This document shows, piece after piece, positions 4,288 to 10,782 of a stretch of DNA of 64,000 nt. Below the pieces are notes generated by a model. It worked only from the letters and a program-made list of their open reading frames with translations. It made no database searches and was not told where the DNA came from. Within the stretch, counting starts at the first letter, position 1. Every line of letters begins with the position of its first letter. The stretch spans positions 291,501-355,500 of the forward strand of contig NZ_CP046523.1 of the NCBI RefSeq assembly GCF_021497885.1, read 5' to 3'. A program made the translations under genes and the position numbers. This stretch comes from Streptococcus oralis. GTDB lineage: Bacteria > Bacillota > Bacilli > Lactobacillales > Streptococcaceae.

Positions 4288-7200
4288 ATGAATAAAGGAT
4301 TATTTGAAAAACGTTGTAAATATAGTATTCGGAAATTTTCATTAGGTGTTGCTTCTGTTATGATTGGGGCTGCATTCTTTGGGACAAGTACAGTTCTTGC
4401 AGATAGCGTGCAGTCTGGCTCCACAGCGAATTTACCAGCGGATTTAGCCGCTGCTCTTGCAACAGCAAAAGAGAATGATGGGCGTGATTTTGAAGCACCA
4501 AAGGCGGGAGAAGACCAAGGGTCTCCAGAAGTTACTGATGGACCTAAGACAGAAGAAGAACTATTAGCACTTGAAAAAGCAAAATCAGCTAGTTCAGATA
4601 AGTTACCAGAAGGCTTAGAGGGCAAATTAGATAAGGCTGAAGATAAAGGGAAAGAAGTTGATAAGGATCAATTAGCTAAGAATACTGAGAATCTCGTTCC
4701 AGAAGATGTAGCTAAAACCAAGAATGGTGAATTAAACTACGGAGCAACTGTCAAAATCAAGACACCATCAGGTGAAGGTAGTGGGATTGTCATTGGCGAA
4801 AATCTTGTTTTAACTGTTTCACATAACTTTATAAAAGATGTTCCAGATGGTAATAATCGCAAGGTTGTTGATAATGATAAGGGTGATGGGGATATCTATA
4901 GCATCTCTTATCCAGGCTTACCAGATGTTAAATTTAGTAAAAAAGACATTATTCACTGGGATCGTGAAGGTTTCCTAAAAGGTTACAAGAATGATTTGGC
5001 TCTTGTGAGATTACGTACAGTTCTCGAAAATACGCCTGTTGAAGTAACCAAAAAGCCAGTAGTTAAGAAAATCGGAGATAAGCTCCATGTCTTTGGTTAT
5101 CCAGAAGGGAAATTGAATCCGATTGTCAATACTACAGTTGATTTTGCAGAACCATATGGAGAAGGTGTCCAAGGAATCGGTTATCAAGGAGGGAAACCGG
5201 GTGCTAGTGGCGGTGGTATCTTTGATACAGAAGGCAAACTAGTCGGTGTTCATCAAAATGGAGTTGTTGGCCAACGGAGTGGTGGTATTCTCTTCTCACC
5301 TGCTCAATTGAAATGGATCCAAGATCACATGAAGGGAATTTCAAGTGTCAAACCTGCAGACTTGGAAGAGAAAGAAAAACCAGCCGAAGACAAACCAAAA
5401 GAGGACAAACCTGCAGCTGCTAAACCTGAAACACCTGAAAAAGTAACAGCTGAATGGCAAACAGTAGAGAAAAAAGAACAACAGGGAACAGTTACGGTTC
5501 GTGAAGAAAAAGGTGTCCGCTACAATCAATTGTCTTCAACTGCACAGAACGACAATGGCGATAAACCAGCCTTGTTTGAAAAACAAGGATTGACAGTTGA
5601 TGCTAATGGAAATGCGACGGTTGATTTAACCTTCAAAGATGATTCTGAAAAGGGCAAATCACGCTTTGGTGTCTTCTTGAAATTTAAAGATACCAAGAAC
5701 AATGTTTTTGTTGGTTATGACAAAGATGGCTGGTTCTGGGAGTATAAATCTCCAACCGATAGCACCTGGTATAAGGGGGGGCGTGTAGCAGCGCCTGAGA
5801 CAGGATCAATTAACCGCCTATCAATTACCCTCAAGTCAGATGGACAACTCAATGCAACGAATAATGATGAGAAACTCTTTGATACGGTTACTTTGCCAGC
5901 AGCTGTTAATGAAACTCTTAAAAATGAGAAGAAAATCGTCCTAAAAGCTGGTTCCTATGGCAATGAGCGAACAGTTGTCAGTGTTAAAACGGACAATCAA
6001 GAAGGTGTAAAAGCAGATGATACTCCTGCCCAGAAAGAAACAGGTCCGGCCGTTGATGATAGCAAGGTGACTTATGACACGATCCAGTCTAAGGTACTCA
6101 AAGCAGTGATTGACCAAGCCTTCCCACGTATTAAAGAATACAGTTTGAACGGGCATACCTTGCCAGGACAAGTTCAACAATTCAATAAAGTATTTATCAA
6201 CAAACACGAAGTCACACCAGAAGTTACTTACAAAAAAATCAATGAGACAACTGCAGAATACTTGATGAAGCTTCGCGATGATGCTAATCTTATCAATGCA
6301 GAAATGACAGTTCGTCTGCAAGTTGTGGATAATCAGTTGCACTTTGATGTGACCAAGATTGTCAACCATAATCAAGTTACTCCAGGTCAAAAGATTGATG
6401 ATGAAAGAAAACTGCTTTCTTCCATTAGTTTCCTTGGCAATGCTTTAGTATCTGTTTCAAGTGACCAAGCTGGTGCTAAGTTTGACGGGGCAACCATGTC
6501 AAATAATACCCATGTCAGCGGAGATGATCATATCGATGTAACCAATCCAATGAAAGACCTAGCCAAGGGTTACATGTATGGATTTGTTTCTACAGACAAG
6601 CTTGCTGCAGGTGTTTGGAGTAACTCTCAGAACAGCTACGGTGGAGGTTCTTATGACTGGACCCGCTTGACAGCCTACAAGGAAACGGTCGGAAATGCTA
6701 ACTATGTCGGAATTCATAGCTCTGAATGGCAATGGGAAAAAGCTTATAAAGGCATTGTCTTCCCAGAGTATACCAAGGAACTTCCAAGTGCTAAGGTTGT
6801 TATCACTGAAGATGCCAATGCAGACAATAAAGTGGATTGGCAAGATGGAGCTATTGCTTATCGTAGCATCATGAACAACCCTCAAGGTTGGGAAAAGGTT
6901 AAGGATATCACTGCTTACCGTATCGCGATGAACTTTGGTTCACAAGCACAAAACCCATTCCTTATGACCTTGGATGGTATCAAGAAGATCAATCTCCATA
7001 CAGATGGTCTTGGGCAAGGTGTTCTCCTTAAAGGATATGGTAGCGAAGGCCATGACTCTGGTCACTTGAATTATGCTGATATTGGTAAACGTATTGGTGG
7101 TGTTGAAGACTTCAAGACCTTGATTGCGAAAGCGAAGAAATATGGAGCTCATCTAGGTATCCACGTTAACGCTTCTGAAACCTATCCTGAGTCTAAGTAC

Positions 7201-10200: not shown

Positions 10201-10782
10201 CAACCACCAGTTCTTGAAGTACCAGAATTCAAAGGCGGAGTCAATGCGGCAGAAGCAGCTGTTCATGAAGTCCCTGAGTTCAAGGGCGGCGTTAATGCGG
10301 CAGAAGCGGCTGTATATGAAGTCCCAGAGTTCAAGGGCGGCGTTAATGCGGCAGAAGCAGCTGTACATGAGGTTCCTGAGTTCAAGGGAGGAGTCAATGC
10401 AGTAGAAGTAGCTGTACATGAGGTTCCTGAGTTCAAGGGAGGAGCCAATGCAGTAGAAGCGGCAGTACATGAAGTTCCTGAGTTCAAGGGCGGTGTCAAT
10501 GCAGCAGAGCCAGCCGTACATGAAAAACCAGAGTACACAGGACCGCTAGGTACAGCAGGTGATGAACCAGCACCAACTGTTGAGAAACCAGAGTATAAGT
10601 TGACACCAGCTTCACTAGCTGATACAAAGACATCAGAAATCAAAGATACTCTGAAAAATGAAGAAAGCAAAAAGACACTCCCAGAAACAGGAGAAGACCA
10701 GTCTGATACAGCCCTCTTCCTAGCAGGAATCAGCCTAGCATTGTCAGCCGCCCTCTTTGCTATTAACAGTAAAAAAGAATAG
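4288..10782 (+). CDS. LPXTG surface protein: trypsin-like serine protease fused to GH101 endo-alpha-N-acetylgalactosaminidase
   Basis: A 2164-residue cell-wall protein. Order: YSIRK signal (1-39); linker; trypsin/V8-like serine protease (about 150-348); Lys/Pro/Glu linker (355-385); GH101 region with N-terminal lectin-like and sugar-binding modules, catalytic barrel and further galactose-binding-like modules (about 390-1790); F5/8-type CBM32 module (about 1760-1890); six 17-residue repeats; sortase motif LPETG (2131-2135), hydrophobic segment and charged tail. Protease triad: His179 (LTVSH), Asp236 (KNDLALV), Ser307 (GASGGG). GH101 catalytic pair: nucleophile Asp1029 (YVDVWGN) and acid/base Glu1061 (FAIEWGHGGE), 32 residues apart as in the pneumococcal enzyme. 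GH101 releases Gal-beta-1,3-GalNAc from Ser/Thr of mucin-type O-glycoproteins. As I remember it, the pneumococcal orthologue lacks the protease domain. Both active sites look intact. The protease target is unknown. Confidence 0.93.
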   Translation: MNKGLFEKRCKYSIRKFSLGVASVMIGAAFFGTSTVLADSVQSGSTANLPADLAAALATAKENDGRDFEAPKAGEDQGSPEVTDGPKTEEELLALEKAKSASSDKLPEGLEGKLDKAEDKGKEVDKDQLAKNTENLVPEDVAKTKNGELNYGATVKIKTPSGEGSGIVIGENLVLTVSHNFIKDVPDGNNRKVVDNDKGDGDIYSISYPGLPDVKFSKKDIIHWDREGFLKGYKNDLALVRLRTVLENTPVEVTKKPVVKKIGDKLHVFGYPEGKLNPIVNTTVDFAEPYGEGVQGIGYQGGKPGASGGGIFDTEGKLVGVHQNGVVGQRSGGILFSPAQLKWIQDHMKGISSVKPADLEEKEKPAEDKPKEDKPAAAKPETPEKVTAEWQTVEKKEQQGTVTVREEKGVRYNQLSSTAQNDNGDKPALFEKQGLTVDANGNATVDLTFKDDSEKGKSRFGVFLKFKDTKNNVFVGYDKDGWFWEYKSPTDSTWYKGGRVAAPETGSINRLSITLKSDGQLNATNNDEKLFDTVTLPAAVNETLKNEKKIVLKAGSYGNERTVVSVKTDNQEGVKADDTPAQKETGPAVDDSKVTYDTIQSKVLKAVIDQAFPRIKEYSLNGHTLPGQVQQFNKVFINKHEVTPEVTYKKINETTAEYLMKLRDDANLINAEMTVRLQVVDNQLHFDVTKIVNHNQVTPGQKIDDERKLLSSISFLGNALVSVSSDQAGAKFDGATMSNNTHVSGDDHIDVTNPMKDLAKGYMYGFVSTDKLAAGVWSNSQNSYGGGSYDWTRLTAYKETVGNANYVGIHSSEWQWEKAYKGIVFPEYTKELPSAKVVITEDANADNKVDWQDGAIAYRSIMNNPQGWEKVKDITAYRIAMNFGSQAQNPFLMTLDGIKKINLHTDGLGQGVLLKGYGSEGHDSGHLNYADIGKRIGGVEDFKTLIAKAKKYGAHLGIHVNASETYPESKYFNENILRKNPDGSYSYGWNWLDQGINIDAAYDLAHGRLARWEDLKKKLGEGLDFIYVDVWGNGQSGDNGAWATHVLAKEINKQGWRFAIEWGHGGEYDSTFHHWAADLTYGGYTNKGINSAITRFIRNHQKDAWVGDYRSYGGAADYPLLGGYSMKDFEGWQGRSDYNGYVTNLFAHDLMTKYFQHFTVSKWENGTPVTMSDNGSTYKWTPEMKVELVDAAGNKVVVTRKSNDVNSPQYRERTVTLNGRVIQDGSAYLTPWNWDANGKKLPADKEKMYYFNTQAGATTWTLPSDWANSKVYLYKLTDQGKTEEQELTVKDGKITLDLLANQPYVLYRSKQTNPEMSWSEGMHIYDQGFNSGTLKHWTISGDASKAEIVKSQGANEMLRIQGNKSKVSLTQKLTGLKPNTKYAVYVGVDNRSNAKASITVNTGEKEVTTYTNKSLALNYIKAYAHNNRRDNATVDDTSYFQNMYAFFTTGSDVSNVTLTLSREAGDEATYFDEIRTFENNSSMYGENHDTGKGTFKQDFENVAQGIFPFVVGGVEGVEDNRTHLSEKHDPYTQRGWNGKKVDDVIEGNWSLKTNGLVSRRNLVYQTIPQNFRFEAGKTYRVTFEYEAGSDNTYAFVVGKGEFQSGNRGTKASNLEMHELPNTWTDSKKAKKATFLVTGAETGDTWVGIYSTGNASNTRGDSGGNANFRGYNDFMMDNLHIEEITLTGKMLTENALKNYLPTVAMTNYTKESMDALKEAVFNLSQADDDISVEEARAEIAKIEALKNALVQKKTALVAEDFESLDAPAQPGEGLENAFDGNVSSLWHTSWNGGDVGKPATMVLKEPTEITGLRYVPRGSGSNGNLRDVKLVVTDESGKEHTFTATDWPDNNKPKDINFSKTIKAKKIVLTGTKTYGDGGDKYQSAAELIFNRPQVAETPLDMSAYEAALANAQKLTDKENQEEVAGVQASMKYATDNDLLTERMVKYFADYLNQLKDSAPKPDAPTSSKGEEQPPVLEVPEFKGGVNAAEAAVHEVPEFKGGVNAAEAAVYEVPEFKGGVNAAEAAVHEVPEFKGGVNAVEVAVHEVPEFKGGANAVEAAVHEVPEFKGGVNAAEPAVHEKPEYTGPLGTAGDEPAPTVEKPEYKLTPASLADTKTSEIKDTLKNEESKKTLPETGEDQSDTALFLAGISLALSAALFAINSKKE
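10216..10521 (+). repeat. Six tandem 51-bp coding repeats in the GH101 gene
   Basis: Six in-frame copies encode EVPEFKGGVNAAEAAVH with minor changes (A/V, H/Y, A/P). The array is Pro/Glu-rich and probably a wall-spanning stalk before the LPXTG anchor. A related unit occurs in the next gene. Near-identical copies make the array prone to length change. Confidence 0.93.

What the first reader, a model, noticed from the sequence alone, without database searches (positions are those of the whole stretch)
4288..10782. Complete trypsin-like protease domain fused to a GH101 mucin O-glycosidase
Seen: residues about 150-348 form an S1-type protease with His179, Asp236 and Ser307 all in proper motifs, upstream of an intact GH101 domain (Asp1029, Glu1061). 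From memory, the pneumococcal GH101 protein runs almost unchanged on both sides but lacks this segment; the catalytic residues here are shifted by 265 positions. Similar Lys-Glu rich text flanks the segment, as if a module had been inserted. Inference: one molecule could remove core-1 O-glycans and then cut the exposed peptide, making a processive mucin or IgA1-hinge degrading machine. Streptococcal M26 IgA1 proteases are reported to carry N-terminal trypsin-like domains too, so this may be a shuffled module, possibly for self-processing instead.
Basis: partly seen in the sequence, partly recalled or inferred. Interest (0 to 1): 0.85.

Follow-up and report, generated by a model that had tools for sequence, protein, structure and literature searches.

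The report
Protease module on streptococcal mucin-sugar enzyme
An oral streptococcus carries a protease-like module on the front of a surface enzyme that strips sugars from mucins; the combination is real, already reported and common among its relatives, and the well-known pneumococcal version appears to be the one that lost it.

Summary

A 2025 paper notes an extra S1B peptidase domain in commensal SpGH101 and ZmpA.

Direction is reversed: the pneumococcal-type gene nests among module-bearing genes and lacks exactly 265 residues, so loss there is the simpler account.

Added here: triad invariant in 64 of 64 copies read; purifying selection; a 91-94% identical 5' block joined to divergent GH101 cores; relatives on GH29, GH33 and M26 enzymes, but also on proteins without a glycan enzyme. 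Activity is unproven: the closest studied relative showed none and looks like a zymogen. The processive mucin/IgA1-hinge machine is not supported.

The parts
4288..10782 (+). 2164-aa cell-wall-anchored GH101 endo-alpha-N-acetylgalactosaminidase with N-terminal S1 protease-like module
   Evidence: ORF; Pfam; NCBIfam NF040533 endo_SpGH101 4235.7 bits, model 1-1961 of 1962
4306..4383 (+). YSIRK signal peptide motif (residues 7-32)
   Evidence: coordinates
4405..4692 (+). variable N-terminal linker (residues 40-135), Lys/Glu-rich before the domain; Leu129 conserved in 63 of 64 copies
4693..5334 (+). S1B-like protease module, residues 136-349 (His179 4822-4824, Asp236 4993-4995, Ser307 5206-5208, S1-pocket-type His322 5251-5253)
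4576..5370 (+). residues 97-361, the exact stretch absent from the pneumococcal-type gene L069 (265 codons)
   Evidence: same junction in 3ecq
5335..5454 (+). Lys/Glu/Pro-rich linker (residues 350-389) between module and GH101_N; near the point where L101 and L103 switch from 91-94% to lower identity
5455..9294 (+). GH101 unit: GH101_N, mutarotase-like, catalytic barrel (Asp1029 7372-7374, Glu1061 7468-7470), beta-sandwich, domain 5, GalBD_like
9595..9945 (+). F5/8 type C domain
10255..10596 (+). SIALI-17 repeats (approximate span set by eye)
10663..10779 (+). LPXTG anchor (LPETG at residue 2131)
10869..10892 (+). terminator-like hairpin after the gene
   Evidence: consensus match only

Best explanation
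The segment is a zymogen-type S1B (glutamyl-endopeptidase-like) protease module, an exchangeable N-terminal passenger on mitis-group surface proteins, several of which attack host glycoproteins (GH101, GH29, GH33, M26). Shown: predicted fold, invariant triad, purifying selection, an identity pattern that implies exchange at the Lys/Glu linker, and absence from the pneumococcal-type gene with GH101 left intact. Inferred: it is latent until the upstream linker is cut near residues 127-135, which would let a new N-terminus order the S1 pocket as in V8/BGP-type proteases; it then cuts after Glu in host proteins close to the glycans that its partner removes. It is tethered, not part of the GH101 reaction. 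Identity of the module about 0.9; this mechanism about 0.4.
Against: No activity is known to me for any copy of this module; the Gemella domain gave none with chromogenic peptides or a peptide library, and its authors do not exclude a lost protease. No conserved cut site was found: residues 130-135 vary and residue 128 is Gln, Glu or Asp. The closest structure 9ect aligns only from residue 146 on (model 42), so the N-terminal argument rests on more distant proteins. DegP-type proteases score as high as V8. A host target is inferred only from partner enzymes, and the 17 double-module rows listed appear to lack a glycan enzyme (one, L112, Pfam-scanned). Pneumococcal-type GH101 does without the module.
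Confidence: 0.42

Rival explanations
1. Self-processing: the module cuts the protein's own Glu-rich linkers, releasing itself or trimming the N-terminus, and has no host substrate.
For: Both flanking linkers are Glu-rich (18% and 20.5% against 5.5% in the domain, 64 copies); H322 suggests Glu at P1. In G130 module and GH101 lie in separate ORFs, consistent with a frameshift in the linker.
Against: Lys/Glu-rich linkers are common in streptococcal wall proteins (recalled); no conserved cut site; the Gemella domain is inactive as purified, including a construct extended at its N-terminus.
Confidence: 0.25
2. One reading: GH101 removes core-1 O-glycans and the protease then cuts the exposed mucin or IgA1-hinge peptide processively.
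For: Both domains sit in one surface protein; several partner enzymes act on glycoproteins (their substrates recalled).
Against: Predicted Glu specificity fits neither the IgA1 hinge nor Pro/Ser/Thr repeats (recalled); the related domain did not contribute to IgA1 cleavage (passages); linkers give no sign of coupling; the pneumococcal type lacks the module and keeps GH101.
Confidence: 0.1
3. Pseudoprotease: the fold is kept as a binding or structural domain.
For: Gemella domain inactive, S1 pocket blocked by loop 2 in the crystal and in an AlphaFold3 model; the window protein has a similar HQNG...RSGG region.
Against: Triad and GASGGG motif invariant in 64 of 64 GH101-linked copies and the triad in all 45 sequences of A1, which a binding domain would not need.
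Confidence: 0.2

Closest known systems
Extra S1B peptidase domain in SpGH101 and ZmpA of commensal streptococci (PMC12211801, 2025; passages seen)
   Same: Same fusion, named as peptidase S1B, in commensal study strains (seven were studied; which ones have it was not seen). The same paper names Cbp33, a trypsin-like domain with two G5 domains
   Different: The passages seen give only the architecture; nothing seen there on a survey, direction of change, triad conservation or GH29/GH33 partners
[quoted passage not shown] PMC9637739, passages seen)
   Different: Partner is an M26 metalloprotease; N-terminal segment differs from that of the GH101-linked copies (Streptococcus M26 rows)
SpGH101 of S. 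pneumoniae, PDB 3ecq
   Same: Same GH101 protein; pneumococcal-type L069 is 95.6% identical to the window over 1281 aligned core residues and near-identical to 3ecq over the 301 residues shown
   Different: Lacks residues 97-361, the whole module
S1B proteases V8, Esp, Spl, BGP and exfoliative toxin A
   Different: 17-27% identity; not fused to glycosidases (recalled)
CbpG, pneumococcal choline-binding serine protease (PMC8592123, passages seen)
   Same: S1 domain on a surface-binding protein; reported to cleave fibronectin and casein
   Different: Sequence relation to this module not tested

Membership tests
SpGH101 endo-alpha-N-acetylgalactosaminidase | GH101 catalytic domain with accessory domains | tested here: met
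   Six GH101-associated Pfam families over cut-off
SpGH101 endo-alpha-N-acetylgalactosaminidase | Catalytic Asp and Glu | tested here: met
   D1029 and E1061 present; their role is recalled from SpGH101 (D764, E796) plus the exact 265 shift
SpGH101 endo-alpha-N-acetylgalactosaminidase | NCBIfam NF040533 cut-off | tested here: met
   4235.7 bits against 2900; match runs over residues 1-1958 and model 1-1961 as one stretch, so the model includes the module
SpGH101 endo-alpha-N-acetylgalactosaminidase | Release of core-1 O-glycans | not testable with these tools
   Needs an assay
Peptidase S1B (glutamyl endopeptidase group) | Chymotrypsin-like double-barrel fold | tested here: met
   Predicted model only
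Peptidase S1B (glutamyl endopeptidase group) | His-Asp-Ser triad in standard motifs | tested here: met
   atomic geometry not measured
Peptidase S1B (glutamyl endopeptidase group) | S1-pocket His for Glu specificity | tested here: met
   H322 aligns with the exfoliative toxin A His and is invariant; that this His sets specificity is recalled
Peptidase S1B (glutamyl endopeptidase group) | Activation by a cut that frees the N-terminus | not testable with these tools
   Only conservation edges at L129 and L136
Peptidase S1B (glutamyl endopeptidase group) | Cleavage after Glu | not testable with these tools
   Needs an assay
GhTrp-type module of surface enzymes | Relation to 9ect above all other solved structures | tested here: met

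The most novel reading that the evidence does not exclude
A latent glutamyl-protease cassette is a shared, exchangeable co-enzyme of mitis-group and Gemella surface enzymes that dismantle host glycoproteins (GH101, GH29, GH33, M26), switched on by a cut in its upstream linker; the pneumococcal type of GH101 discarded it by an in-frame deletion.
Probability: 0.3. Interest if true: 0.6.

Novelty: already known. Interest (0 to 1): 0.36.

Why it matters
SpGH101 is known mainly from the pneumococcal form (recalled), which here looks like a derived, shortened version; 65 of 94 streptococcal GH101 genes carry a conserved protease-like module whose job is unknown. That the enzymes found beside it (GH101, GH29, GH33, M26) act on host glycoproteins makes a concrete, testable question of what the module cuts and how it is switched on.

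Tried and rejected
Insertion in this lineage: rejected, because the pneumococcal-type G157 nests inside the module-bearing clade. Chance fold: rejected. Mature N-terminus at Leu136: considered, then dropped, because the structural alignment puts Leu136 at residue 10 of V8/BGP; I had first numbered this Leu 137 (also in notebook entry 2) and corrected it. MdpS/MdpS2 of S. oralis as relatives: not pursued; the passages seen say no homology to known protease classes. PMC6722419 (passages: no hit for trypsin or acetylgalactosaminidase in its main text) and PMC11861894 (passages: no hit for trypsin) did not describe the fusion. The paper that does, PMC12211801, was already in the listing but I opened it only; searches did not list it. 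GH29 and GH33 fusions in print: one search found no paper; others (12 of 73 papers listed; 10 of 297 listed) showed none by title or abstract start, and I opened only some, so absence in print is weakly supported and covers the held open-access library only. G209 looked like a broken gene, but its frame ends at a run of N, so it is a gap. G122 has stops inside the module and G130 a split consistent with a frameshift; both are only described. Two weak module matches (G086, G277; E 3.0e-4 and 1.3e-4) were not examined. The Foldseek 'pdb' search never ran; VIA-align re-ranks Foldseek's own list, so unlisted folds are not excluded. The tree is a quick one (SH-aLRT only) with 52 of 65 module-bearing and 29 of 29 other GH101 rows; for G122, G130 and G209 the core came from the ORF that holds GH101. 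For one search I gave the script 59 module rows and 53 GH29 rows picked by eye for long frames from cut-off lists.
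Full report
What is there. The window ORF 4288-10782 (+) encodes 2164 residues: YSIRK signal, a Trypsin_2 domain (164-321), the full GH101 set (390-1669), an F5/8C domain, repeats and an LPXTG anchor. In the window's own genome the only full match lies at G000:C1:295788-302279.

How common it is. In 284 Streptococcus genomes, GH101 occurs in 94 and a match to the module in 79, two of them weak and unexamined. 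In 65 of the 94 GH101 genes the module lies on the same strand 1404-1648 bases upstream of the catalytic domain (a second G122 piece at 1767). In 62 of the 65, searches give the same open-frame length for both domains; the others are G122 (stops inside the module), G130 (separate ORFs, consistent with a linker frameshift) and G209 (an N run). Of the 29 without the module I Pfam-scanned two (L073, which has two GH101_N domains; L246). NCBI's curated SpGH101 model already spans the module. A BMC Genomics paper of 2025 states in a figure legend that commensal SpGH101 and ZmpA have an extra S1B peptidase domain. The fusion is therefore neither rare nor unreported.

Which way the change went. In a quick tree of 81 GH101 cores (52 with the module, 29 without) the label needs four changes and starred branches force four. 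G157, without the module, sits in a 98*-supported group of six whose other five rows all have it. Its protein is near-identical to crystallised pneumococcal 3ecq, and the gene next to it matches the window's upstream binding-protein gene (86% identity over 513 residues). It lacks exactly residues 97-361, with a purine-rich Lys/Glu-coding junction. So the pneumococcal-type gene most simply lost the module. G157 is unnamed; that S. pneumoniae itself shares this history rests on 3ecq.

Module exchange. L101 (G244) and L103 (G229), compared in 100-residue blocks of window numbering, are 91-94% identical over residues 1-400 but 43-84% in the next 17 blocks (13 of them under 70%); the last, short block is 52 of 56. 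L101 belongs to seven module-bearing rows with a distant core; three of them have cores 66% identical to the window. Only L101 was compared block by block. The pattern implies recombination at the linker.

Constraint. H179, D236, S307 and H322 are identical in 64 of 64 copies read, which have 48 distinct sequences over residues 137-350, down to 53% identity. dN/dS of the module against the window is 0.032-0.121 in 15 pairs, against 0.034-0.061 for the core; several dS values are saturated.

Other partners. The window genome has a second copy in a YSIRK/LPXTG protein with a GH29 fucosidase (L106). Of 59 such copies taken, 50 have a listed GH29 787-856 bases downstream (both lists were cut off, GH29 rows picked by long frame); all 8 of 8 loci examined locally have it. 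L115 has two modules and a GH33 sialidase; L112 two modules and choline-binding repeats; L119 has M26; Gemella L226 has M26, and L221, cut off by its contig end, two modules and G5. Against a pure glycan theme, the double-module class of L112 (17 rows at 44-46%; four loci checked for two modules, one Pfam-scanned) shows no glycan enzyme. The window genome's own M26 gene gave no module match. In GH29-linked copies the text before the domain reads RAIINGG, like a classical trypsinogen activation site (comparison recalled). A scan of one genome for each of 84,980 species found 116 relatives and kept 79 loci: 77 Streptococcus and 2 Gemella by record title; the other relatives were not shown.

How it may work. 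The Gemella domain was inactive in two kinds of peptide assay, had loop 2 in its S1 pocket, and was proposed to be a pro-enzyme needing an N-terminal cut; it did not contribute to IgA1 cleavage. In the window family, strict conservation starts at Leu136, with Leu129 conserved in 63 of 64 just before a variable stretch. The alignment to V8 and BGP starts at Leu136 = their residue 10, which leaves nine residues for a V8-like N-terminus, near residue 127. A cut at 128/129 after Gln/Glu/Asp would fit; this is inference. His322 predicts Glu at P1, which suits Glu-rich linkers or ordinary host protein regions and not the IgA1 hinge (recalled).

Verdict. Observation confirmed; interpretation partly supported; architecture already known.

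Noticed in passing
L246 (G019:C1:1468000-1487900), minus strand ORF of 6519 aa in the stretch: YSIRK protein with GH33 sialidase and GH101 in one continuous ORF, followed across a masked N run by GH29 fucosidase, BgaA-like GH2, CBMs and G5: possibly four glycosidases in one polypeptide, with no Trypsin match in the readable parts. Continuity across the N run is not shown.
   Followed up: partly
G000:C1:1597000-1606000 (L106): Same genome: protease module fused to a GH29 fucosidase with F5/8C, G5 and LPXTG; RAIINGG before the domain resembles a trypsinogen activation site (resemblance recalled).
   Followed up: partly
window 10934-19297 (+): 2787-aa YSIRK protein with both GH20 and GH84 domains and five F5/8C matches, directly downstream.
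   Followed up: no
L073 (G137), minus 704-7552: GH101 protein with two GH101_N domains and no protease module.
   Followed up: no
L128/L050 (G130): The protease module lies in a 386-aa ORF apart from the GH101 ORF, consistent with a frameshift in the Lys/Glu linker; slippage and assembly error were not told apart.
   Followed up: no
window 4288-10782 against relatives: For several relatives dS is higher in residues 137-571 than in the rest of the core, which may mean more recombination in the 5' part.
   Followed up: no
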